Origin: a virus
Length of the DNA: 62,619 nt
Virus record (IMG/VR): IMGVR_UViG_3300042565_002416
Location: 1-62,619 of that record
Direction: 5' to 3' (one strand)
The notes beneath the pieces are model-generated. The model was not told where the DNA came from, did no database searches, and was given only the letters and a program-made list of their open reading frames with translations. Shown piece by piece: positions 29,023 to 51,177 of this stretch. The stretch's first letter is position 1; every line of letters starts with the position of its first letter. The translations under genes and the position numbers were made by a program.

Positions 29023-32000
29023 ATGGCACAATTAAGATCGACTTTAATAACAGGCTCAACCCATGAAAATCTATTAAATATTAATTCACCTATTCTATCT
29101 AACATATTAACAGTTAGTGGATCAGGTGTTGTTAATATTAACGGTTTTTTCAAAACAAATTATATTTATGATATAACTAATACGACAGGTTCTACAGGTC
29201 AAGTATTATCAACAACAAATGCTGGGGTACAATGGGTGACAGCATCTTCTCCAGGTGGTGGAGGTGGTGAAGGTATATTCACATCAGGAACTACACTTGG
29301 TTCATCATTAAGAAAAGATAGTGGTAACATAGTTAGTGGACAATATTCAAGTGTTTTAGGTGGTAGAACTAATACAGTGTCAAGTCCCTGTTCATCCATC
29401 GTTGGTGGTTTTAGTAATTTAATATCTGGTGGAACATCATTTATAGGTGGTGGTTGTGGAAATACCGCCAATGGGGATTGTTCGTTTATCGGTGGTGGTT
29501 TATTTAATACAGCATTAGGTTATCGTTCAGCTTTGGTTGGTGGTTTTAATAATACATCATTAGGATTTCACTCATTTGTTGGTGGTGGTAGTTCCAATAC
29601 CGCTTCTAGTTATGCATCATTTATTGGTGGTGGTTATTTTAATACATCGTCTGGTTTATATTCATTTATTGGTGGTGGTTTTACTAATACAGTGTCAAGT
29701 CCCTGTTCATCCATCGTTGGTGGTTTTAGTAATTTAGTAACAGGTTCAACATCATTTATAGGTGGTGGTTCTTGTAATACAGCTTCAGGTAATATTTCAA
29801 CCGTATCGGGAGGATATCGTAATACAGGGTCAGGTAATGGTTCATTTGTTGGTAGTGGTTTTTTTAATACATCTTCAGGGTTATCTTCATTTATTGGTGG
29901 TGGTGATTTTAATTTGGTTTCAGGTAATTACTCAACAATTGGTGGTGGACTTTGTAATAGGACAACATTTAATTACTCAACAATTGGTGGTGGTAGAGAT
30001 AATATTTTAGATGGTTATGATAGTTTAATAAATGGTGGTGTTGGTAATTATATATTAAATAAGAAATCGTCTATTGGCGGTGGTTTAATGAATATTATTG
30101 CCTCAGCAACAACATTTTCAGCGTATTGGGATAATACATATTTAAATATCAATACCGATGTGTCAGCCCAATTTACTTCAGGTGATGATATAAGAGTGTT
30201 TAATTTTATAGATGACACACATTTTGTAACAACAGTTTCAAATTCATATTTTAATATAGGTAATGGTTGTACAGAACTAACATTAAATACCCCAATTGGT
30301 ACTAATAGTAATGCGATATTATTTAATAAATCAACTTCAAGTGTTAGTGGCTGTTATAATGTAATAGGAGGTGGACAAAATAATATATCATACGCTGATT
30401 TTTCAACAATTGGTGGTGGATGTAATAATTTAGCTTCAGGGTTTAATTCAGTAATTGCCGGTGGTGGAAATAATAGGACGACATTTAATTACACAACTAT
30501 CGGTGGTGGTTTTAGAAATACGGTATCCGGTAACTATTCAACAATAGTTGGTGGTAGAAATAATTCGGCATCAGGTAATTGTTCATTTGTAGGTGGTGGT
30601 GCTCAAAATACGGCTTCATCAGGATCAACCGTATCTGGTGGTATTTGTAATAGAGCAACAAACACTAGTTCATTTATCGGTGGAGGTGAACTTAATTTAG
30701 CGACTGGAAATACATCAATTATTGTTGGTGGTTTAAGTAATACAACCTCAGGTAATTGTTCAATTATAGTAGGTGGTGTTGGTAACTTATCACTTGGTGA
30801 TCGTTCATTTATTGGTGGTGGTGCTCAAAATACGGCTTTTAATAGTTCATTTATTGGTGGTGGAAACGGTAACACAGCTTCAGGTAATCATTCAATTGTT
30901 TCCGGTGGTAATACCAATACAGCTTCAGGTGAGTGTTCAACCGTATCGGGAGGATATCGTAGTATAACATTTGGTAGTTTTTCATTCGTAGGTGGTGGAT
31001 TTTGTAATACAGCATCCGGAATTGAATCGGTTGTGGTTGGAGGTGATATAAATAGAGTGTCAGGTATTAACTCATTTATTGGTGGTGGTATTAATAATTT
31101 AGTAACTGGAGGAACATCAGTAATTGTAGGCGGTTCAGGTAATACGATTTCCAACACATTCTCTGTTATAGTTGGTGGTTGTAATAATTTAGCTTCAGGA
31201 ACTTGTTCATTTGTTGGTGGTGGATTTAATAATAGAGCTACTAATAATCTTTCTTTTGTAGGTGGTGGGTGTTGTAATACCGCTTCAGCATCTTTATCTA
31301 TTGTTGTTGGTGGTAGAAGAAATACCGCTTCTGGTTATGCATCATTTATTGGTAGTGGTGGTTTTAATGTAACGTCAGGTAATCAATCATCAGTAGGTGG
31401 GGGTTGTTCTAATACATTAATCGGTGGTTGTTCAACCATAGGTGGTGGACTTTGTAATATAGTATCTGGAGCCTCATCATCTATTTTTGGTGGTGAAAAT
31501 AATAGGGCAAATGGGAATTTTTCATCTATTAATGGTGGTAGATTTAATTTGGTTACATCAGGATCAACAGTTTCTGGTGGTATTCGTAATACGGCTTCAG
31601 GAATTTGTTCAACCGTATCGGGAGGATATTGTAATATAACGTCTGGTAGTTTTTCATTCGTAGGTGGTGGATTTTGTAATACAACGTCTGGCATTGAATC
31701 GGTTGTGGTTGGAGGTGATTTAAATAGAGTGTCAGGTATTAACTCATTTATTGGTGGTGGTATTAATAATTTAGTAACTGGATCTACATCATCTATTGTA
31801 GGTGGTTCAGGTAATACGATTGGTTCTAAATTTTCATTTATTGGGGGTGGTGAAAGAAATACTACTTTATTTGATAATACTTTTATATTGGGTTCAAATA
31901 TTTCAGCTACAACTAGTAATACAATTTTCACTGAATCAGTAAACGTATTGGCCGCAAAATGTCTACCTGGTAATCAAGAAACAGCTATATTAGTAAGGGG

Positions 32001-32505
32001 GTGTGGAACTATTGGCGGTTCGGATTATTTAGATTTTATGAGAGGTGAAAATACCGCAGTTGGTGCCACTAATAATAAAAAAACATTTAGAATAAACAAT
32101 ACCGGTGCCGTTGAAATTATAGATAACACATATACTAACGTAATATTAAATCTTACAGATGCTGGTGTTTTAAGTACACCTGGTGGTGGAACTTCTGATA
32201 TTAGAACCAAAACAAATATAGAATATATTGACGATGATTATACACCATTTATAAATAAATTAAAACCAGTGAGATTTGAGTTTAATGGTAATATTGGTGT
32301 TAAAAGGCATGGTTTTATCGCACAAGATGTTTTACAAATAAAACCTGATTTAGTTTTAGGTGATGGTGATAATGAAAAAGGAACATACGGTTTAGATTAT
32401 GACGGTATATTATCTTTAACGGTTAAAGCGTTACAAGAGGCTAATAGTAAAATAAAAAGTTTAGAAGAAGAAATTATTAATATAAAATCTTTATTAAATA
32501 AATAA
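29023..32505 (+). CDS. Repeat-built tail fibre with C-terminal S74 chaperone
   Basis: A 1160-residue protein. The N-terminal linker contains GQVLSTTNAGVQW. GGxxNTASG repeats run from nt 29335 to 31880, interrupted at about 30096-30340 by a non-repeat domain of about 80 residues. The cap is NNTFILGSNIS with a D before the first N. The C-terminus is an S74 intramolecular chaperone with the Ser-Lys pair in SDIRTK (Ser codon at 32194), then GFIAQDV and a terminal coiled coil (KALQEANSKIKSLEEEI). Self-cleavage would release about 103 residues. It is followed 20 nt later by a sulfotransferase. Confidence 0.9.
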   Translation: MAQLRSTLITGSTHENLLNINSPILSNILTVSGSGVVNINGFFKTNYIYDITNTTGSTGQVLSTTNAGVQWVTASSPGGGGGEGIFTSGTTLGSSLRKDSGNIVSGQYSSVLGGRTNTVSSPCSSIVGGFSNLISGGTSFIGGGCGNTANGDCSFIGGGLFNTALGYRSALVGGFNNTSLGFHSFVGGGSSNTASSYASFIGGGYFNTSSGLYSFIGGGFTNTVSSPCSSIVGGFSNLVTGSTSFIGGGSCNTASGNISTVSGGYRNTGSGNGSFVGSGFFNTSSGLSSFIGGGDFNLVSGNYSTIGGGLCNRTTFNYSTIGGGRDNILDGYDSLINGGVGNYILNKKSSIGGGLMNIIASATTFSAYWDNTYLNINTDVSAQFTSGDDIRVFNFIDDTHFVTTVSNSYFNIGNGCTELTLNTPIGTNSNAILFNKSTSSVSGCYNVIGGGQNNISYADFSTIGGGCNNLASGFNSVIAGGGNNRTTFNYTTIGGGFRNTVSGNYSTIVGGRNNSASGNCSFVGGGAQNTASSGSTVSGGICNRATNTSSFIGGGELNLATGNTSIIVGGLSNTTSGNCSIIVGGVGNLSLGDRSFIGGGAQNTAFNSSFIGGGNGNTASGNHSIVSGGNTNTASGECSTVSGGYRSITFGSFSFVGGGFCNTASGIESVVVGGDINRVSGINSFIGGGINNLVTGGTSVIVGGSGNTISNTFSVIVGGCNNLASGTCSFVGGGFNNRATNNLSFVGGGCCNTASASLSIVVGGRRNTASGYASFIGSGGFNVTSGNQSSVGGGCSNTLIGGCSTIGGGLCNIVSGASSSIFGGENNRANGNFSSINGGRFNLVTSGSTVSGGIRNTASGICSTVSGGYCNITSGSFSFVGGGFCNTTSGIESVVVGGDLNRVSGINSFIGGGINNLVTGSTSSIVGGSGNTIGSKFSFIGGGERNTTLFDNTFILGSNISATTSNTIFTESVNVLAAKCLPGNQETAILVRGCGTIGGSDYLDFMRGENTAVGATNNKKTFRINNTGAVEIIDNTYTNVILNLTDAGVLSTPGGGTSDIRTKTNIEYIDDDYTPFINKLKPVRFEFNGNIGVKRHGFIAQDVLQIKPDLVLGDGDNEKGTYGLDYDGILSLTVKALQEANSKIKSLEEEIINIKSLLNK
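29335..31880 (+). repeat. About 50 coding tandem repeats of roughly 45 bp, interrupted once
   Basis: The same 15-residue units as in the other fibres, split by a non-repeat insert at about 30096-30340. A long internal duplication relates about 30936-31150 to 31608-31822 at an offset of 672 nt, and a shorter one relates 29368-29450 to 29690-29770. Cysteine is again frequent at unit positions 3 and 10/11. Confidence 0.92.
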
Positions 32506-32531
32506 TTATTCTTATTATTAACCATATGACA
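32485..32531 (+). repeat. Direct repeat, left copy: fibre 3' end plus leader
   Basis: This copy encodes the last six fibre residues (KSLLNK), the stop, the spacer AATTATTCTTATTATTAACC and the ATGACAAAA start of the sulfotransferase. It matches 33644-33689 apart from two substitutions and one indel. The two copies flank the sulfotransferase and the 86-residue gene. Confidence 0.85.
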
Positions 32532-33344
32532 AAACAAATATTTTTTAACGCATCAATGCCAAGAGCAGGTTCTACATTAATTCAAAATATACTAATGCAG
32601 AATCCAGAAATTTATTCAACACCAACATCAGGAGTAATAGAATTTCTTTTGAACGCTAGAACAATTTACACCACAGGAGATGCTTTCAAAGCACAAGATC
32701 CGGAAGTAATGAAACAAGGTTTTAAAGGATTTTGTAAGGCAGGAATTCACGGATTTTTTAATAACATAACAGATCGACCTTATATTATGGAAAAAAGTAG
32801 AGGTTGGTTAGGTCATTACGATTTTATTAAATTTTTTAACGATGATGTTAAAATGATTTGTATGGTTCGTGATTTAAGAGCTATCTTCGCTTCTATGGAA
32901 AAAAATATGAGAAAAAATCCAGATAAGGATTCAATGATTATTAATAATGTAGAATTAAAAAATATGACTACTAAATCAAGAATAGATCATTTTTCAGTTG
33001 CTCCTCCTATAGGTCCTTCGGTAGAATGGTTAAATGAAGTCATACATCAAGGGTTAGATCAAAAAATATTGTTTATTCGTTTTGAAGATTTAACAACAAA
33101 TCCTGAAATAGAACTTAAAAAAATTTATAATTATTTAGAAATACCGCACTATTTACATAACTTTAATAATATTGAGCAATTAACTCAAGAAAATGATGTT
33201 ATTCATGGTATGTTTGGTAATCATAACATTCAACCAACATTAAAACCATTAGTTGATGATTTTGTAGAAGTATTAGGAGAAGAAGAATGTGAAAGATTAA
33301 AAAATCATTATTACTGGTACTTTAAAAAATTCAATTACGTATAA
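32526..33344 (+). CDS. PAPS-dependent sulfotransferase
   Basis: A 272-residue protein of the sulfotransferase superfamily, which moves sulfate from PAPS to a hydroxyl or amine of a sugar, lipid or protein. The 5'-phosphosulfate loop is PRAGSTL (residues 12-18), and the 3'-phosphate-binding segment is MVRDLRAIFASM (about 113-124), with Arg 115 and Ser 123 in the expected places. Length is usual for the family. A paralogue is at 50362. It has the same leader and first codons as the APS kinase at 33684, suggesting shared control or duplication of the junction. The substrate cannot be read from sequence; fibre or host-surface glycan is an inference from position. Confidence 0.85.
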   Translation: MTKQIFFNASMPRAGSTLIQNILMQNPEIYSTPTSGVIEFLLNARTIYTTGDAFKAQDPEVMKQGFKGFCKAGIHGFFNNITDRPYIMEKSRGWLGHYDFIKFFNDDVKMICMVRDLRAIFASMEKNMRKNPDKDSMIINNVELKNMTTKSRIDHFSVAPPIGPSVEWLNEVIHQGLDQKILFIRFEDLTTNPEIELKKIYNYLEIPHYLHNFNNIEQLTQENDVIHGMFGNHNIQPTLKPLVDDFVEVLGEEECERLKNHYYWYFKKFNYV

Positions 33345-33365
33345 TTTAAAATAACAAAAAACAAA

Positions 33366-33626
33366 ATGGAAACACCAAAATTTCAATTAGAAAAAAAAAC
33401 CGAAGAACAAGTTAAGAACTCAATCAACGCAACATTTGATTCAGTAAACTTAATTAATTCAATTACATCTGAACCATTTGACGTAAAAAAAGAAAAAACC
33501 GTTAAATCTAATATAGAGCATTTATCTTTAATGTTATCAAAAGATTGGTTCGCAGCAGGATTAACAAAAGAACAAAAATCACAAATAGAAGCTTGTATTG
33601 TTGCCGGTAATGATTATAAAGCATAA
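33366..33626 (+). CDS. Small conserved phage protein, function unknown
   Basis: An 86-residue, mostly helical, charged protein with no membrane segment. The C-terminal half (LSKDWFAAGLTKEQKSQIEAC) is the most distinctive part. It lies between the sulfotransferase and the APS kinase inside the direct-repeat-flanked interval, so it would be lost together with the sulfotransferase. No function assigned. Confidence 0.6.
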   Translation: METPKFQLEKKTEEQVKNSINATFDSVNLINSITSEPFDVKKEKTVKSNIEHLSLMLSKDWFAAGLTKEQKSQIEACIVAGNDYKA

Positions 33627-33643
33627 TAATATTTAAATAAATC

Positions 33644-33689
33644 AAATCTTTATTTAATAAATAATTATTCTTACTATTACCATATGACA
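33644..33689 (+). repeat. Direct repeat, right copy: fibre-tail remnant plus leader
   Basis: Reads as KSLFNK plus stop followed by nearly the same spacer and the ATGACAAAA start of the APS kinase. No fibre gene precedes it, so the six codons look like a remnant of a copied fibre/leader junction. It pairs with 32485-32531. Confidence 0.85.
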
Positions 33690-34139
33690 AAAATTATATG
33701 GTTAATCGGACAAGCAGGACACGGTAAAACTGTTTTGGCTAAATTATTAGAAAAACACATTGATATTACAGTAAGTAATAATGTATTTCATATTGATGGT
33801 GATGATCTTAGAAATCTTACAATAAATAAAGATTATTCAAAAGCTGGAAGAGAGCAAAATATTAGAAATGCTCAAGTAATTGCCAAATACTTACAAAATA
33901 AAGGTTATCACGTTGTGGTATCTCTTATGACACCTTATAGAGATATTAGAGAAGAGTTTAAGAAAAATACGGAAAATGTTTTTGAAGTATATGTTCATAC
34001 AACAGAAATAAGAGGTAGAGAACAATTCCACGTTGAAGATTTTCAGAAACCTGTATCAAATTATTTAGATATGAATACAACAAATATTACACCAGAAGAA
34101 TGTGTAAAGGAGATTATAGAATATGTCGGATTGGTATAA
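33684..34139 (+). CDS. cysC: Adenylylsulfate (APS) kinase
   Basis: A 151-residue protein that would phosphorylate APS with ATP to give PAPS, the donor for sulfotransferases. Walker A is GQAGHGKT (residues 9-16); the substrate segment is DGDDLR (38-43), followed by KDYSKAGREQNIR (49-61), the CysC family pattern. It is shorter than the usual cellular enzyme of about 200 residues, with a trimmed C-terminus (VEDFQKP in place of the usual FTGIDDPYE-like segment). It overlaps the next gene by 17 nt. Together with the sulfotransferases at 32526 and 50362 it makes a sulfation pathway plausible. Confidence 0.85.
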   Translation: MTKIIWLIGQAGHGKTVLAKLLEKHIDITVSNNVFHIDGDDLRNLTINKDYSKAGREQNIRNAQVIAKYLQNKGYHVVVSLMTPYRDIREEFKKNTENVFEVYVHTTEIRGREQFHVEDFQKPVSNYLDMNTTNITPEECVKEIIEYVGLV

Positions 34140-34527
34140 AAAAGTACACGTTCAGTCATCATTAGAACGTAAAGAAGGACAACACGCAATGTTTATTGGT
34201 AGATGGCAACCATTACATAAAGGACATCAAGAATTATTTCAACAAGCAATGAATGAGGGTAAGAATATTCTAATCTGTATTAGAGATATTAAACCCGATG
34301 AAAAAAATCCATATTCAGCTGAAGAAGTAAAAACAAATATCTTAAACTATTATTCAAATGAAGTATCAGAAGGTAAAGTAAAAGTAATGGTAATACCTGA
34401 TATTTGTTCAGTTGAGTTTGGTAGGGGTGTTGGATATGATATTATTGAACATTTACCACCATTGGATATTGCAAATATTTCAGCAACAAAAATAAGAGAA
34501 CAATTAAGAACTGAGGGTAAATTGTAA
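34123..34527 (+). CDS. HxGH-type nucleotidyltransferase, possibly ATP sulfurylase-like
   Basis: A 134-residue protein of the cytidylyltransferase-like superfamily. The HxGH motif is in GRWQPLHKGHQ (His 32, Gly 34, His 35) and the second nucleotide-binding motif is ISATKIR (119-125). Members transfer AMP or CMP to phosphates, or AMP to sulfate in ATP sulfurylase. The class is clear; the substrate is not. Because it overlaps the APS kinase by 17 nt and the DUF2061 gene by 1 nt, making APS from sulfate and ATP is an attractive guess. A sugar-nucleotide or cofactor adenylyltransferase role is the main alternative. It is much smaller than classical ATP sulfurylase. Confidence 0.75.
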   Translation: MSDWYKKVHVQSSLERKEGQHAMFIGRWQPLHKGHQELFQQAMNEGKNILICIRDIKPDEKNPYSAEEVKTNILNYYSNEVSEGKVKVMVIPDICSVEFGRGVGYDIIEHLPPLDIANISATKIREQLRTEGKL

Positions 34528-34952
34528 TGAAAACTTATAAAATTAGATTTAATACCACATCAATAACAGAAAATAATAGATGGAGGTTGGTTGATGAAAA
34601 TGGTATGGAAACATTGGTTTCAGATATTTTTGTTGATGGTGAAGTTTATACAACAAAAGACCATATGGATGGTTTAGGGTATAAATGGCACATTACTTGT
34701 AAAGGTAATTGTGTTATTAAAGATAATATTGCCCATATTACAACACCACCGAAGGAATCTGCTTTCAAAAGACACTTATTAAAAACTATTTCATATAGAT
34801 TTTTAGGAACTTTAACAACAGTAGTGGTGGCTTATACTTTAGGAGTACCAATAGCTATGGCTTCTATGTTAGGTGTTGGTGAGTTGGTATTAAAACCAAT
34901 ATTATATTTTTTACACGAAAGAGTTTGGTATAAATATATAAAAATAAAATAA
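34527..34952 (+). CDS. DUF2061-type membrane protein
   Basis: A 141-residue protein. A soluble N-terminal part of about 70 residues (RWRLVDENGMETLV, then YKWHITCKGNC) precedes a C-terminal membrane region with two probable hydrophobic segments (about 90-125) in the DUF2061 pattern: KTISYRFLGTLTTVVVAY, then GVGELVLKPILYFLHERVW. DUF2061 has no proven function; I recall it in neighbourhoods with sulfate-activation genes. The TAATG overlap with the nucleotidyltransferase suggests coupled translation and a shared pathway, perhaps sulfate supply or membrane anchoring. It ends the sulfur-activation operon. Confidence 0.75.
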   Translation: MKTYKIRFNTTSITENNRWRLVDENGMETLVSDIFVDGEVYTTKDHMDGLGYKWHITCKGNCVIKDNIAHITTPPKESAFKRHLLKTISYRFLGTLTTVVVAYTLGVPIAMASMLGVGELVLKPILYFLHERVWYKYIKIK

Positions 34953-38384: not shown

Positions 38385-41318
38385 ATGGCAGAACAAATAA
38401 ACGTATCACCTGGTGTATATACTAGTGAAGTTGAATTAACATTTGCAGCTCAGAGCTTAGGTGTCAGTTCATTAGGTATAGTAGGTGAGGCACAAAGAGG
38501 ACCGGCGTTTGAACCAATTCTTGTAAAAAATTACGATGAATTCACTACTTACTTTGGTGGTGCAAATCCTGAAAAATTCTCAGGTACACAAATCTTAAAA
38601 TATGAAGGTAATTACATTGCTAGAGAATATCTTTCTCAAGCAAGTCAAATGTATATGACTAGAGTATTGGGTTTAAGTGGTTATGATGCAGGAACTGCAT
38701 GGTCTATTAGTACAATTGCACAACCTGATATTTCAACAATATCATTAGCAAGTCCAGCAAATATTTACGCACCATTCTTATTAACAACTGGTGGTACATT
38801 AACATTTACATACCCATCATTTTTATCACCATATCAAAATGTGATATCTGCAACAACTAATCAATTCTTTAGTTCAGTTGTTAGTTTATATACTTCAAGA
38901 ATAGGAGCTTTATCTGCATCAACAATATCATATAGATATGGTGATTTAACATCAACAGCAATAAATACAATTACAGGTATTACAACAACCTCAATGACTG
39001 ATGTTTTAGGAAGTAATACTAATGATACTACTTGGCTTAATGATTTATTTTTATCAACAGGAGTAAATACATTTTCTGGTATTACTTATGGTGTATTTGT
39101 AACAGGTTTAACATTAAATCCGGGTGGTGTGTATAGTGGTACAACTAATTTCATTAACTGTAACGCATCAGTTGCTGGTTATAGTGGTTGGGATAATTTA
39201 GTAGTTGCTACATTAAGAAGTGACGCTAATTGGAGTAATAATACTTTAAACTTTGTAACATCAAATCCATTTATGGTACCAATTGATGATATAACTGAAA
39301 ACGCTAAAGGTGGTTTTAGAATTACAGGAACAAGTTCAACAGGAGCTTACTCATATACAGTTAGTATGGATGATACTAAGAGAGAATACTTACCACTTGT
39401 ATTAGGTAAACAACCAAAAGAAAAACAAAGTACTTTGTTTGTTGAAGAAATCTATCCTGAGTTATTAGACTATGGTTATTTGAAAGGTTATATTAGAGGT
39501 TTGAAAACAACTTTAACAACTAACTCTTCAACATCAGGTGTAAATATGACTAACTATAAGGAACAATGGTCTACACCAGCAACACCTTATTTTGTATCAG
39601 AATTAAGAGGTAATAACGTATTCAAATTATTTAGAGTTATTACAATTTCTGATGGTAATGCGGCAAATGCGTTAGTAAAAATATCAATCCAAAATATTAA
39701 TTTAGATAGAAAAGAGTTTGATTTAATCGTTAGAGATTTTAATGATACAGATGCTAATCCAGTTATTTTAGAAAAATATGTAAGATGTTCAATGGATGAA
39801 AGTCAATTAACTTACGTTGGTAAAAAAGTTGGTACTATTGATGGTAAATACGATTTGAAATCTAAATACATTATGATTGAATTTGCAATAGACGCTCCAT
39901 CAAATGCGGTTCCAGCAGGTTTTATGGGTTATACTATTAGAAGTTATGGTTCAGGGGTAGCTAGTCCTAAAATTCAATACAAAACTAAATACTTTACAGC
40001 AGGTGAACAAATTACTAATCCACCAGCAGGTATTTCACCAATAATTTCAAGTGGTGATAATATTAGAAAATCTTTTTTAGGTATTTCAGATAGTAATTTC
40101 TGGGGTTATGATGGTGATTTCTTCCAATACAAAGGAAATGTTGCTTCAACAGTTAATAGTAATGGTTTCCATATGGATTCAGGAGCTACAAACGCATCTA
40201 TCGGTGGTGTTTCAGGAATTACCACATTTGATGTAGGTGTTGCACCATTCCAAAGTGAAGTTGGTACAGCAGGAACACCATATTCTAGTTTATTAAGTAG
40301 AAAGTTCACAGTAGCACCTTATGGTGGTTATGATGGATGGGATATTTATAGACCATATAGAACTAATGGTGATAGTTATAGAATTGGACAAACCACTTAT
40401 ACTAACGAAGGATTTAGTGCTCTTGGTAATTCTGACTACTACGCTTACAAAGCAGGTATTGATAAATACTCAAACCCTGAAGATGCCGATATTAACGTAT
40501 TAGTAACTCCTGGTATTGATGTTGAAAGTAACTCATCTCTTGTAGAATATACAATTGATATGGTAGAAAATGATAGAGCTGATAGTATTTACATACCGAC
40601 TATTCCAGATATTAATATGTTTGCGACAGATTCTGCTGACACTAATAATTGGAAATCACCACAAGAAGTTGTTGATTTAATAGATGAGGTTGGTATCGAT
40701 TCTAACTATACCGCAGTTTACTACCCATTCGTTCTTTATAACGATACTGAAAATAATTCTAAAGTATGGATGCCACCAACAGCGGAAGTTGTAAGAAACT
40801 TAGCTTTAACTGACAACATATCTTATGAGTGGTTTGCTATAGCGGGTACTGAAAGAGGTTTAGTGGTATCAAAACCAAGAAGAAAACTTTCTCAAACTGA
40901 TAGAGATACATTATATCCTGGTAGAGTTAATCCAATCGCAACTTTTAGAGGTGTTGGACCGGTTATTTGGGGTAATAGAAACTTACAAATCAGAGACTCT
41001 GTTCTTGATAGATTAAATATCAGAAGATTGTTACTACAAACAAGAAAACTTATCGCAGCAGTTGGTTTAAGATTATTATTCCAACCAAACGATCAACAAG
41101 TTAGAAATGACTTTTTGAACTTAGTAAATCCAATCTTAGATGGTATCAGAAGAGAAAGAGGTTTAACAGATTTCAGAGTTAAGTTAAGTAACGCACCTGA
41201 AGATATTGATAATAATCAATTAAATGGTCAAATCTTCTTAAAGCCTACATCAACTCTTGAAGAGATTAATTTACAATTTGTTATCACTCCTCAAGGAGCT
41301 TCATTTGATAACATTTAA
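38385..41318 (+). CDS. gp18: Contractile tail sheath protein (T4 gp18-like)
   Basis: A 977-residue protein that polymerises around the tail tube and contracts at infection. Family signatures are the N-terminal SPGVYTSEVELTF and GIVGEAQRGPAFEP, and a C-terminal block (about residues 840-977) with RRKLSQTDRD, GVGPVIWGNRNLQ and SVLDRLNIRRLLLQTRKLI. T4 gp18 has 659 residues, so this protein carries about 300 extra residues, mostly in the middle (about 100-330 and 500-650), probably surface domains. Codon choice here has more AAC, TTC and ATC than nearby genes, fitting high expression. A strong terminator follows. The tube gene is not beside it. Confidence 0.92.
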   Translation: MAEQINVSPGVYTSEVELTFAAQSLGVSSLGIVGEAQRGPAFEPILVKNYDEFTTYFGGANPEKFSGTQILKYEGNYIAREYLSQASQMYMTRVLGLSGYDAGTAWSISTIAQPDISTISLASPANIYAPFLLTTGGTLTFTYPSFLSPYQNVISATTNQFFSSVVSLYTSRIGALSASTISYRYGDLTSTAINTITGITTTSMTDVLGSNTNDTTWLNDLFLSTGVNTFSGITYGVFVTGLTLNPGGVYSGTTNFINCNASVAGYSGWDNLVVATLRSDANWSNNTLNFVTSNPFMVPIDDITENAKGGFRITGTSSTGAYSYTVSMDDTKREYLPLVLGKQPKEKQSTLFVEEIYPELLDYGYLKGYIRGLKTTLTTNSSTSGVNMTNYKEQWSTPATPYFVSELRGNNVFKLFRVITISDGNAANALVKISIQNINLDRKEFDLIVRDFNDTDANPVILEKYVRCSMDESQLTYVGKKVGTIDGKYDLKSKYIMIEFAIDAPSNAVPAGFMGYTIRSYGSGVASPKIQYKTKYFTAGEQITNPPAGISPIISSGDNIRKSFLGISDSNFWGYDGDFFQYKGNVASTVNSNGFHMDSGATNASIGGVSGITTFDVGVAPFQSEVGTAGTPYSSLLSRKFTVAPYGGYDGWDIYRPYRTNGDSYRIGQTTYTNEGFSALGNSDYYAYKAGIDKYSNPEDADINVLVTPGIDVESNSSLVEYTIDMVENDRADSIYIPTIPDINMFATDSADTNNWKSPQEVVDLIDEVGIDSNYTAVYYPFVLYNDTENNSKVWMPPTAEVVRNLALTDNISYEWFAIAGTERGLVVSKPRRKLSQTDRDTLYPGRVNPIATFRGVGPVIWGNRNLQIRDSVLDRLNIRRLLLQTRKLIAAVGLRLLFQPNDQQVRNDFLNLVNPILDGIRRERGLTDFRVKLSNAPEDIDNNQLNGQIFLKPTSTLEEINLQFVITPQGASFDNI

Positions 41319-43991: not shown

Positions 43992-44717
43992 ATGACTAAC
44001 GAGAAAAGAGAAAGTATTATTAAGAAAATCAACCTCTTAAAGCAAAAAACCACAGCTAATGGTTGTTCAGAATCAGAAGCAATGACAGCAGCTGAAATGA
44101 TTTCAAGACTTCTTCAAGAATACGATTTATCAATGACAGAAGTTGAGGCTAAATCACAAGAGTTTATTACCGAAGAAATCGGTATTAACAGTAAGATTAA
44201 AAAACCTATTCACGATGTAGTTAGTTCAATAGCTCATTTTACAGACACTAAAGTTTATTTTAGAAAACGTATATTTGACTACGTATATAACTTCTTTGGA
44301 ACTAAAAAGGATGTTGAGTTCGCTAGTTATTTATTTGATTTGTTATCACACGCCATGGATAATGAATACGCTAAATATCAAAAAACACCTGAATATAAAA
44401 TGATTGGCGGTAAAACAGCTCGTGGTTCTTTTTATAAGGGAATGATTATCAGATTAAGTCAAAGACTTCGTGAAATGAAAAATAACATTGCTAACGAAGC
44501 GAAATCTTCAGGGTTGGTTTTATATAATAAAATGGCGATTACTGACCAAATGTTCAGAGAACGTAACCCTTACTTGAGATTAAAAACAACAACGTCAAAA
44601 ATGACAATTTCCGACACAAAGGCTTTTAATTCAGGTAAAGATGCGGCTGATCGTGTAAATATCACATCAGGTTTAAACGGTAGAAAGGCATCAAGTAATA
44701 TGAGATTGACATCTTAG
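43992..44717 (+). CDS. DUF2786-domain protein
   Basis: A 241-residue protein. Residues 1-48 fit the DUF2786 pattern (IIKKINLLKQKTTANG, then EAMTAAEMISRLLQEYDLS), a short helical domain frequent in phage and prophage proteins. The middle (VSSIAHFTDTKVYFRK, then FFGTKKDVEFASYLFDLL) matches the region that commonly follows it, and the C-terminus is basic. The molecular role of this family is not established; a nucleic-acid-related function is often guessed. It converges on the KTSC gene with a 4-nt overlap of the 3' ends. Confidence 0.75.
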   Translation: MTNEKRESIIKKINLLKQKTTANGCSESEAMTAAEMISRLLQEYDLSMTEVEAKSQEFITEEIGINSKIKKPIHDVVSSIAHFTDTKVYFRKRIFDYVYNFFGTKKDVEFASYLFDLLSHAMDNEYAKYQKTPEYKMIGGKTARGSFYKGMIIRLSQRLREMKNNIANEAKSSGLVLYNKMAITDQMFRERNPYLRLKTTTSKMTISDTKAFNSGKDAADRVNITSGLNGRKASSNMRLTS

Positions 44718-45625: not shown

Positions 45626-46195
45626 ATGAATTTATACGAAATAAGAAACGAATATTTAGAATTATTATCGTTTTTAGAAGAAAATGAAGGTGAGTTAACC
45701 CCAGAGTTGGAAGAGTTAATGTTAATTAATAAAGAAACATTTAAAGAAAAATCTTTAAATTATATTAAAATCATTAATAAATTAAAATCGGATTTATCAT
45801 ACGCAGAAGAAGAAATTAGTAGAATTCAATCTTATATCAATAAGAAAAACACATCAATAAATAGATTGGAAACAACCTTATTAGATGCTTTAAAATTATA
45901 TGGTGATAAAGACCCTAAAAAGAACATTTATCGTTTTGAAGTAGGTACTTTTAGATTATCAACCAGACAATCGGAATCAGTTAATATTGATATTGATCGT
46001 ATTAGTAATGATTATAAAGAATATACGATTAAAAATTTAACGTATAAAGAAAAAGAATCTATATTAGAGTTATTAAAAAAGGAATTAAAATTAGATGTTA
46101 CAGTCCCTAAAAAAGGTTTGAAGGAGTTAATATCTGACGGTAATGAAATTGAAGGTGCTTCAATTAAAACTAATTATTCCTTAATAATCAAATAA
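45626..46195 (+). CDS. Siphovirus Gp157-like protein
   Basis: A 189-residue protein in the Gp157 pattern: N-terminal MNLYEIRNEYLELLSFLEE, a long central coiled coil (about 45-90, EEISRIQSYINKKNTSINR), and a C-terminal beta part with IDIDRISNDYKEYTI, KKGLKELISDGNEIEGASI. Gp157 was first linked to phage resistance in Streptococcus thermophilus when over-supplied, and family members are thought to act in phage DNA metabolism or as nuclease inhibitors. Length is normal. It lies between the tmRNA terminator and a convergent minus-strand gene. The promoter is unclear; TATATTTTG at about 45589 is one base off the host consensus. Confidence 0.7.
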   Translation: MNLYEIRNEYLELLSFLEENEGELTPELEELMLINKETFKEKSLNYIKIINKLKSDLSYAEEEISRIQSYINKKNTSINRLETTLLDALKLYGDKDPKKNIYRFEVGTFRLSTRQSESVNIDIDRISNDYKEYTIKNLTYKEKESILELLKKELKLDVTVPKKGLKELISDGNEIEGASIKTNYSLIIK

Positions 46196-49477: not shown

Positions 49478-50362
49478 ATGAAAAAATACGCTTTATTTCA
49501 CATAGAGGGTGGTTTAGGAAAACACGTAGCCGCCACCGCAGTCGCAAAATGTATAAAAAATAATCATTCCGACAGAGAACTTCTTGTAGTATGTGCTTAC
49601 CCTGAAATATTCTTAAATCTAAACTTTATTAGTAAAGTTTTTAGAATAGGTAACACCCCTTACTTTTATCAAGACTATATTAAAGATCAAGACACTTTAA
49701 TATTTAAACACGAACCTTATTTTACCACAGATCATATTAGTAAAAAGATTCCTCTTATTGAGAATTGGTGTGGTTTATATAACTTAGATTATTTAGGTGA
49801 GCAACCTGAATTAGTTTTCAACGTAAGACAATTACAACACGGACACAAAAAATGGGTTAGACAAAAACCAATTATGGTTATACAAACAAACGGAGGACCA
49901 TTACAACAAGATTCATCTTATTCTTGGACAAGGGATATTCCTTACCCTGTAGCTGAATCATTAGTAAATTATTATTCTAAAGATTATCATATTATTCAAG
50001 TATGTAGACATGAAGAAAATAAAATAGCAGGATGTGAACACGTATTAGAACCAATGTCAAATATGGAATTATTTTCATTAATGTTAGTAAGTCAAAAAAG
50101 AATTTTAATTGATAGTTGTTTACAACACGCAGCAGCAGCTTTAAATAAAAAATCAACAGTATTATGGATTGGAACATCACCGAAATTATTTGGGCACGAT
50201 ATTCACGATAATTTTACAGCGGTTATTGATGATGGTATTAAATTACCAGATAGTTATTTATTTGATTTTAGTTTCGATGGTGTATTCCACGAATGTCCTT
50301 TAATGGATTTTAATATATTTGATATGGAATCAATAATTTACTCAATAAATAATCAACAATAA
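49478..50362 (+). CDS. GT9-like (heptosyltransferase-fold) glycosyltransferase
   Basis: A 294-residue protein with the GT-B layout of glycosyltransferase family 9, which transfers heptose or similar sugars. The N-terminal loop GGLGKHVAATAVAKCI (11-26) is the acceptor-side glycine loop, and the C-terminal signature CLQHAAAALNKKSTVLWIG (about 213-231) matches the donor-site helix and strand of the family. No membrane segment is seen. Typical members build LPS core; this phage copy could glycosylate host surface or a virion protein. It overlaps the second sulfotransferase by one base (TAATG), implying coupled synthesis, and follows a fibre gene. Confidence 0.75.
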   Translation: MKKYALFHIEGGLGKHVAATAVAKCIKNNHSDRELLVVCAYPEIFLNLNFISKVFRIGNTPYFYQDYIKDQDTLIFKHEPYFTTDHISKKIPLIENWCGLYNLDYLGEQPELVFNVRQLQHGHKKWVRQKPIMVIQTNGGPLQQDSSYSWTRDIPYPVAESLVNYYSKDYHIIQVCRHEENKIAGCEHVLEPMSNMELFSLMLVSQKRILIDSCLQHAAAALNKKSTVLWIGTSPKLFGHDIHDNFTAVIDDGIKLPDSYLFDFSFDGVFHECPLMDFNIFDMESIIYSINNQQ

Positions 50363-51177
50363 TGGAAAAAATATTCTTTCAAAGTTCATTACCTAGAAGT
50401 GGTTCAACCCTTCTTCAAAATATAATAGGACAAAATCCTGATTTTTACGTAACACCAACATCAGGTGTATTAGAATTAGTATATGCAGCAAGAGCCAATT
50501 ACACCAACTCACCAGAATTTAAAGCACAAGATGCTGAATTAATGAAAAAAGGTTTTACTGCGTTTTGTAAGGGTGGTGTTGAATCGTACTTTAGCTCAAT
50601 AACAGACAAAAAATATGTGATGGATAAATCAAGAGGTTGGGGTATTCATTATGGATTTTTGGAAACTTTTTATCCTGAACCAAAAGTTGTTTGTATGATA
50701 AGAGATCCAAGATCGATATATGCGTCAATGGAAAAAAACTTTAGGAAAAATCAACATTTAGATTCCGGTATTGTGGATCACGCTAAAATGCAAGGAACAA
50801 CAACTGAAAAAAGGATAGATATTTGGACACAAGGACAACCGGTTGGTTTGGCGATGGAAAGATTATATCAGGTAATAAAAGAAGGTATTAATAAAAAAAT
50901 GTTGTTTGTTAAATTTGAAGATTTGTGTAGATATCCTGAACAGGAAATGAAAAAGATTTACACATTTTTAGATGTACCATTTTATCAACACGATTTTGAT
51001 AATATTGAGCAAATAACACAAGAAGATGATTCAGTTTATGGGATATATGGTGATCACGTAATTAAATCTAAATTAACTCCAGTTAAGAACGATTATAAAG
51101 AAGTTTTAGGTGTAAACGCATCAAATTGGGTTAGACAAAACTTTGGTTGGTTTTACGATGAATTTAAATATATCTAA
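50362..51177 (+). CDS. PAPS-dependent sulfotransferase (second copy)
   Basis: A 271-residue paralogue of the gene at 32526. 5'-phosphosulfate loop PRSGSTL (11-17), 3'-phosphate site CMIRDPRSIYASM (111-123), and the shared YVMDKSRGW segment (85-93). The middle differs from the first copy (GQPVGLAMERLYQV versus IGPSVEWLNEV), so the acceptor may differ. Coupled to the GT9-like gene by TAATG, so a sugar added by one could be sulfated by the other; this is inference. PAPS could come from the APS kinase at 33684, which is 16 kb away in the same genome. Confidence 0.85.
   Translation: MEKIFFQSSLPRSGSTLLQNIIGQNPDFYVTPTSGVLELVYAARANYTNSPEFKAQDAELMKKGFTAFCKGGVESYFSSITDKKYVMDKSRGWGIHYGFLETFYPEPKVVCMIRDPRSIYASMEKNFRKNQHLDSGIVDHAKMQGTTTEKRIDIWTQGQPVGLAMERLYQVIKEGINKKMLFVKFEDLCRYPEQEMKKIYTFLDVPFYQHDFDNIEQITQEDDSVYGIYGDHVIKSKLTPVKNDYKEVLGVNASNWVRQNFGWFYDEFKYI

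What the first reader, a model, noticed from the sequence alone, without database searches (positions are those of the whole stretch)
32526..34952. Phage-encoded sulfation module: sulfotransferase, APS kinase, HxGH nucleotidyltransferase and DUF2061 membrane protein beside a fibre gene
The sequence shows PAPS-site motifs in two sulfotransferases (32526 and 50362), a Walker A and DGDDLR-type APS kinase, and an overlapping HxGH/ISATKIR nucleotidyltransferase. Family knowledge: APS kinase makes PAPS, the sulfotransferase donor. Inference: the nucleotidyltransferase makes APS, so the phage could run sulfate to PAPS to a sulfated product. Location beside fibre genes suggests decoration of fibres or host glycans, for example to hide, change or block a receptor.
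Basis: partly seen in the sequence, partly recalled or inferred. Interest (0 to 1): 0.85.

Follow-up and report, generated by a model that had tools for sequence, protein, structure and literature searches.

The report
Phage sulfation cassette with unusual enzyme
This virus of microbes carries a compact gene set that very probably makes the universal sulfate donor PAPS and uses it to put sulfate on something, and its first step is probably done by an unrecognised kind of enzyme that also occurs in many bacteria and archaea lacking the textbook one.

Summary
The genes are really there. Window 32526-34952 holds a sulfotransferase, an 86-aa orphan, an APS-kinase-like P-loop kinase, a 134-aa HxGH nucleotidyltransferase (NT) and a DUF2061 protein; a second sulfotransferase lies at 50362. 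This is a recurrent cassette: NT had the kinase beside it in 80/80 fetched viral loci, and kinases found independently had NT in 41/42.

NT is not a classical ATP sulfurylase. By sequence and tree it is nearest NMN adenylyltransferase, but it lacks that enzyme's NMN-site Trp segment. Yet relatives in Omnitrophota, Acidobacteria, Patescibacteria and Haloarcula are fused, in both domain orders, to APS kinases (several above NCBI's equivalog cut-off). Sulfotransferase genes lie within 5 kb in 13/50 such genomes (0.5 expected). Among 117 APS-kinase-bearing genomes of one phylum, canonical ATP sulfurylase occurs in 95/103 without NT but only 1/14 with NT.

Best explanation: NT is a minimal, non-orthologous ATP sulfurylase and the cassette runs sulfate to APS to PAPS to a sulfated product. 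The acceptor is unknown; a position near repeat fibres and tail sheath in many relatives fits fibre or surface-glycan decoration but does not show it. No activity has been measured. It also suggests that many 'assimilatory' phage cysC genes serve sulfation.

The parts
29023..32505 (+). upstream fibre gene: LbR-type repeats and C-terminal Peptidase_S74 chaperone; possible acceptor (inference)
   Evidence: PF13884 E 5.9e-12, PF21300 E 6.3e-12
32526..33344 (+). sulfotransferase ST1 (272 aa), PAPS-site motif PRAGSTL
   Evidence: PF13469 3.6e-15, PF00685 3.1e-13; phrog_27463 2.1e-39; TPST is the best solved relative of the profile, E 1.8e-10
33366..33626 (+). 86-aa orphan ORF inside the cassette
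   Evidence: no family match over cut-off; relatives next to ST/KIN in about 16 other loci
33684..34139 (+). APS-kinase-like P-loop kinase (151 aa) with a shortened lid
   Evidence: PF01583 66.6 bits; solved APS kinase 8a8h E 1.3e-15; R43, R56, N59, P84 invariant in 34 relatives
34123..34527 (+). HxGH nucleotidyltransferase NT (134 aa), proposed minimal ATP sulfurylase
   Evidence: PF01467 over gathering; family signature GRWQPxHxGH..R..NP..PDI..GRxVGY..IS[AG]TxxR; model pLDDT 83
34527..34952 (+). DUF2061 two-helix membrane protein with an N-terminal beta domain (X)
   Evidence: PF09834 54.6 bits at residues 84-134; model pLDDT 88, strands 2-72, helices 77-104 and 109-137
50362..51177 (+). second sulfotransferase ST2 (271 aa), 48% identical to ST1
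   Evidence: PF13469 4.1e-21; same PHROG; alignment A4
38385..41318 (+). tail-sheath-like protein downstream; relatives also lie downstream of the cassette in other viruses
   Evidence: PF04984 E 1.1e-5 and PF17482 E 2.2e-5, both just under gathering

Best explanation
The cassette is a virus-encoded PAPS-making and sulfation unit. The 134-aa nucleotidyltransferase acts as a minimal ATP sulfurylase (ATP + sulfate to APS + PPi; inferred). The overlapping kinase phosphorylates APS to PAPS (inferred from family and residues), pulling the unfavourable first step forward. The one or two sulfotransferases then transfer sulfate from PAPS to a virion fibre or host surface molecule (PAPS use follows from family; the acceptor is a guess). 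NT is not descended from the known ATP sulfurylases: it is an NMNAT-like adenylyltransferase whose acceptor site was rebuilt (NMN segment lost, invariant GRxVGY and an extra invariant Arg gained). The same enzyme, fused to or beside APS kinase, makes PAPS for sulfation in diverse bacteria and archaea without Sat or CysDN. DUF2061 is a membrane partner of APS kinase with unknown role.
For: Family matches. The kinase sits next to NT in 80/80 fetched viral loci, DUF2061/X in about 68 and a sulfotransferase in about 51 within 5 kb. Starting from the kinase, 41/42 loci with room have NT. Cellular NT is fused to APS kinase in both domain orders; three of five fusions pass TIGR00455 apsK (203, 172, 150 bits; cut-off 138.7). 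Other viruses pair NT with kinases scoring far higher on PF01583 (148-227 bits), in either order or fused, and one fuses DUF2061 to APS kinase (211 and 71 bits). Of 50 NT-bearing genomes, 4 have Sat and about 9 CysD, but 37 have a Sulfotransfer_3 gene over cut-off and 48 an APS kinase. Strong PAPS-reductase-family matches (which include CysD) occur in only about 11. Sulfotransferase within 5 kb in 13/50, 0.53 expected. In one phylum, canonical ATP sulfurylase in 95/103 NT-minus and 1/14 NT-plus APS-kinase genomes, Fisher p 4e-11. No Sat or CysH in any viral locus within 5-6 kb. Haloarcula also has a separate true NMNAT (256 bits). NT lacks the NMNAT Trp segment.
Against: No enzymatic, structural or mass-spectrometric evidence. 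NT's nearest characterised family is NMNAT and PF01747 is below gathering (19.6 of 24.3 bits). The window's kinase is a diverged, short-lid member below the apsK equivalog cut-off. Genomes in the replacement table are often incomplete, many NT-plus ones are related small marine genomes, and one (G194) has both NT and Sat. Of 50 NT genomes, 13 lack a Sulfotransfer_3 gene over the cut-off. About a third of viral loci show no sulfotransferase within the fetched flank.
Confidence: 0.72

Rival explanations
1. The NT-kinase pair makes a different activated nucleotide, as the CysC-like kinase and a cytidylyltransferase do in the Campylobacter O-methyl phosphoramidate capsule pathway (from memory). 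The sulfotransferase link would then be loose.
For: CysC-like kinases can be misread as APS kinases (recalled; the paper search gave no direct text). The window's kinase is below the apsK equivalog cut-off and short-lidded. Some viral loci lack a sulfotransferase.
Against: Relatives of NT are fused to kinases over the apsK equivalog cut-off, sit near sulfotransferases in cells and replace canonical ATP sulfurylase. Kinase residues matching the known APS-site motifs (DGDxxR, GRxxNI, PY) are invariant or nearly so.
Confidence: 0.13
2. NT is an NMN adenylyltransferase and the kinase a nucleoside kinase: an NAD-salvage or counter-defence module like NadR or NadM of phages.
For: NMNAT is the nearest solved family (2qjt E 2.9e-8), and the tree puts NT beside NMNAT and NadM. 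Phages do carry NadM next to nicotinamide phosphoribosyltransferase.
Against: NT lacks the Trp-containing NMN segment and about 40 residues present in NMNAT. TIGR01527 gives 27.5 of 181.2 bits. The kinase is APS-kinase-like, and no nicotinamide phosphoribosyltransferase was recognised among the cassette genes scanned. Haloarcula has its own separate NMNAT.
Confidence: 0.05
3. The cassette boosts host assimilatory sulfate reduction, as phage cysC genes are usually interpreted.
For: Published reading of phage cysC and cysH (PMC10914622, PMC9529941).
Against: No PAPS reductase in any fetched viral locus. Sulfotransferase is the frequent neighbour. The cassette lies near fibre and sheath genes in a share of loci. 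Many NT-bearing genomes lack PAPS reductase.
Confidence: 0.07

Closest known systems
Bifunctional PAPS synthase (PAPSS) and bacterial Sat-CysC fusions
   Same: An adenylyltransferase making APS is coupled to or fused with APS kinase to make PAPS for sulfotransferases; both use an HxGH (HxxH) nucleotide-binding motif
   Different: NT is 115-135 aa, lacks the QTRNP motif and the rest of the roughly 400-aa Sat protein, and groups with NMNAT in the tree
CysDN ATP sulfurylase
   Same: Same proposed reaction
   Different: Unrelated proteins (PP-loop ATPase plus GTPase); NT has no CysD match in NCBIfam
Archaeal/NadM-type NMN adenylyltransferase
   Same: Closest sequence and fold; GRxQPxHxGH and SxTxxR motifs
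   Different: NT lacks the NMN-binding Trp segment, has GRxVGY and an extra invariant Arg, and goes with APS kinase
Phage cysC auxiliary metabolic genes (PMC10914622, PMC9529941)
   Same: Phage-borne APS kinase, common and transcribed in freshwater
   Different: Published as assimilatory sulfate reduction; here the gene is tied to NT, DUF2061 and sulfotransferase
Cyanophage sulfotransferases (S-SKS1, S-SRM01)
   Same: Relatives of ST1, 24-30% identical
   Different: No relative of this kinase was found in those phages, so they presumably use host PAPS

Membership tests
ATP sulfurylase (Sat, PF01747) | score over Pfam gathering cut-off | tested here: not met
   19.6 of 24.3 bits
ATP sulfurylase (Sat, PF01747) | QTRNP..H..H motif and long catalytic domain | tested here: not met
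   GRWQPLHKGH and 134 aa against QTRNP and 378-552 aa frames in Sat loci
ATP sulfurylase (activity) | forms APS and PPi from ATP and sulfate | not testable with these tools
   inferred from fusion, neighbourhood and replacement pattern
NMN adenylyltransferase | over equivalog cut-off TIGR01527 | tested here: not met
   27.5 of 181.2 bits
NMN adenylyltransferase | Trp-containing NMN segment before SGxEIR | tested here: not met
   present in Haloarcula NMNAT L138 (EDINRNAVWVSHV), absent from NT, which runs PDI..GRxVGY to ISAT in about 25 residues
APS kinase (PF01583) | over Pfam gathering, P-loop, DGDxxR, GRxxNI | tested here: met
   66.6 against 21.1 bits; residues invariant
APS kinase (TIGR00455 equivalog) | over NCBIfam cut-off | tested here: not met
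   window 70.9 of 138.7 bits; three fused cellular relatives pass
Sulfotransferase (PF13469/PF00685) | over Pfam gathering with 5' PAPS motif | tested here: met
   PRxGSTL invariant in 23 relatives
DUF2061 | over Pfam gathering | tested here: met
   54.6 against 23.1 bits

The most novel reading that the evidence does not exclude
NT is a third, independently evolved class of ATP sulfurylase, very small and dedicated to sulfation rather than assimilation. It is spread through uncultured phages, Marinimicrobia, Patescibacteria, Omnitrophota, Acidobacteria and some archaea, and lets genomes without Sat or CysDN make PAPS; many phage cysC genes then serve sulfation of surfaces.
Probability: 0.6. 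Interest if true: 0.87.

Novelty: new variant of a known kind. Interest (0 to 1): 0.74.

Why it matters
Only two unrelated ATP sulfurylases (Sat and CysDN) are commonly recognised. A third would fill the missing first step in many genomes that have sulfotransferases and APS kinase but no known source of APS, and gives a simple test. It would also change how a common class of phage auxiliary metabolic gene is read, from sulfur nutrition to chemical decoration of virions or host surfaces, a phage-host strategy with little direct study.

Tried and rejected
Megablast of 23 kb against phages found nothing, so the phage has no close named relative. Fold searches for NT gave PPAT and NMNAT chains tied at Z about 9, with ATP sulfurylase 2gks only weakly in Foldseek: no decision on substrate. 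A fold search with the DUF2061 protein model gave no match better than E 1.1 and only helical look-alikes in the membrane part; the N-terminal beta domain was not tested alone. I tested whether the S74 fibre is always upstream: only 1 of 58 loci with room has it, though a repeat-type fibre lies upstream of the sulfotransferase in 13/40 and a sheath downstream in 16/65, so the fibre link is partial. Sulfotransferase alone is a poor anchor for the replacement test, since 31 NT-minus genomes have one but neither ATP sulfurylase nor APS kinase; I used APS kinase instead. Literature searches found no description of the NT family, within an open-access library only. I did not resolve which host this phage infects.

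Full report
WHAT IS THERE. The window is a 62.6 kb linear virus record with no close named relative. On the + strand lie ST1 32526-33344 (sulfotransferase), an 86-aa orphan 33366-33626, KIN 33684-34139 (APS-kinase-like), NT 34123-34527 (HxGH nucleotidyltransferase) and a DUF2061 protein 34527-34952. KIN and NT overlap by 17 nt; NT and the DUF2061 gene share one base. ST2 lies at 50362-51177. Upstream is a repeat fibre with an S74 chaperone end, and downstream, after four genes, a tail-sheath-like gene.

A RECURRENT CASSETTE. A scan of IMG/VR with NT gave 455 relatives, 80 fetched. In all 80 the kinase is next to NT; DUF2061 or its N-terminal domain is in about 68 and a sulfotransferase in about 51 within the flank (some contigs are near copies). 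Starting from the kinase instead, 41 of 42 loci with room on both sides have NT within 1.5 kb. A scan with a cellular fusion found another viral lineage in which NT goes with, or is fused to, kinases scoring 148-227 bits on PF01583, in either gene order; a further scan found DUF2061 fused to APS kinase in one frame (L264; 211 and 71 bits). No Sat and no PAPS reductase was found within 5-6 kb in any viral locus.

CELLULAR RELATIVES. A profile scan of 84,980 genomes found 54 relatives in Marinimicrobia, Bacteroidota, Omnitrophota, Planctomycetota, Acidobacteria, Patescibacteria, Alphaproteobacteria, a marine group III euryarchaeote and Haloarcula. Many are single proteins joining NT and APS kinase, as kinase-NT (L103, L123, L131) or NT-kinase (L106, L124). 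Three of five tested pass NCBI's apsK equivalog cut-off. The most informative neighbourhoods: L106 has sulfotransferase-family genes upstream and a sulfatase downstream; L119 has three sulfotransferase-family genes; L123 has a sulfotransferase two genes upstream.

REPLACEMENT TEST. In 50 NT-bearing genomes, Sat is found in 4 and convincing CysD in about 9, while 37 have Sulfotransfer_3 over cut-off and 48 an APS kinase. A Sulfotransfer_3 match lies within 5 kb of the NT-linked APS kinase in 13, with about 0.5 expected. As a control, 199 genomes from the phylum of one of them were searched with five queries. Among APS-kinase-bearing genomes, 95 of 103 without NT have Sat or CysD; only 1 of 14 with NT does (Fisher p 4e-11). 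Limits: incomplete genomes, and relatedness of the small marine genomes, so the p-value overstates independence.

WHAT NT IS. Across viruses and cells the signature is GRWQPxHxGH, an invariant Arg after the second strand, NP, a PDI segment, GRxVGY, and IS(A/G)TxxR. The first and last are the nucleotide-binding motifs of the superfamily (established knowledge). The nearest solved relatives are NMN adenylyltransferases, and a tree of 45 domains puts NT in one group beside NMNAT and NadM and away from Sat and PPAT (support 90 for that side, only 53 for NT itself). But NT lacks the Trp-containing segment and about 40 residues that NMNAT has, and Haloarcula has a separate true NMNAT. NT is therefore not a member of the Sat family or of NMNAT by tested features; 'works like an ATP sulfurylase' is the inference from fusion, neighbourhood and replacement. 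The two extra arginines are candidates for sulfate binding (inference). The predicted model (pLDDT 83) does not discriminate between acceptors.

KINASE, SULFOTRANSFERASE, DUF2061. The kinase matches solved APS kinases (8a8h E 1.3e-15) and keeps the residues of the known APS-site motifs, but has a short lid and is below the equivalog cut-off. The sulfotransferase profile matches protein-tyrosine sulfotransferase best among solved chains (E 1.8e-10, partial); this does not fix the substrate. DUF2061 is two predicted helices; in the window it is preceded by a confident beta domain that other viruses encode separately. Its role is unknown; the fusion to APS kinase ties it to this pathway.

ACCEPTOR. 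In 13 of 40 loci a repeat-type fibre ends within 2 kb upstream of the sulfotransferase, and a sheath-like gene lies downstream in 16 of 65. This fits expression with tail genes and decoration of fibres, but host glycans, small molecules or lipids are not excluded.

RELATION TO THE LITERATURE. Phage cysC is published as a common, transcribed gene for assimilatory sulfate reduction (PMC10914622, PMC9529941). The present data point to sulfation for this lineage. Phage sulfotransferases are known in cyanophages. I found no description of the NT family in the held library; absence there is not proof.

VERDICT. The sulfation cassette is real and widespread. The novel part is a candidate non-orthologous ATP sulfurylase, strongly indicated by context but untested biochemically.

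Noticed in passing
window 34527-34770; stand-alone in L065 5405-5635, L034 5393-5623, L010 3178-3408: An unnamed beta domain of about 75 residues is fused to DUF2061 in the window and a separate gene next to NT in other viruses; it has no Pfam match.
   Followed up: partly
L264 4743-5570: DUF2061 fused to APS kinase in one 275-aa viral protein, without NT nearby.
   Followed up: yes
L272 4920-5867: Viral APS kinase carries a C-terminal extension with a weak match to haloacid dehalogenase hydrolases, followed by NT and preceded by DUF2061.
   Followed up: no
L082 4593-5324, L083 4590-5327, L170 4641-5387: Isolated Stenotrophomonas, Clavibacter and Xanthomonas phages carry a kinase-NT fusion (phrog_10255, 'kinase') with a weak APS-kinase match and no annotated sulfotransferase within 5 kb; cultured systems in which to test the family.
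   Followed up: partly
L106 2658-10651: Omnitrophota locus with sulfotransferase-family genes, an arginine-deiminase-family gene, the NT-APS kinase fusion, a methyltransferase, a radical SAM protein and a sulfatase: looks like a sulfated-product cluster.
   Followed up: partly
window 43992-44717: Gene with DUF7168 and DUF2786 domains near a Gp157-like gene (45626-46195).
   Followed up: no
window 33366-33626: 86-aa orphan ORF that recurs next to the sulfotransferase or kinase in about 16 other viral loci.
   Followed up: partly
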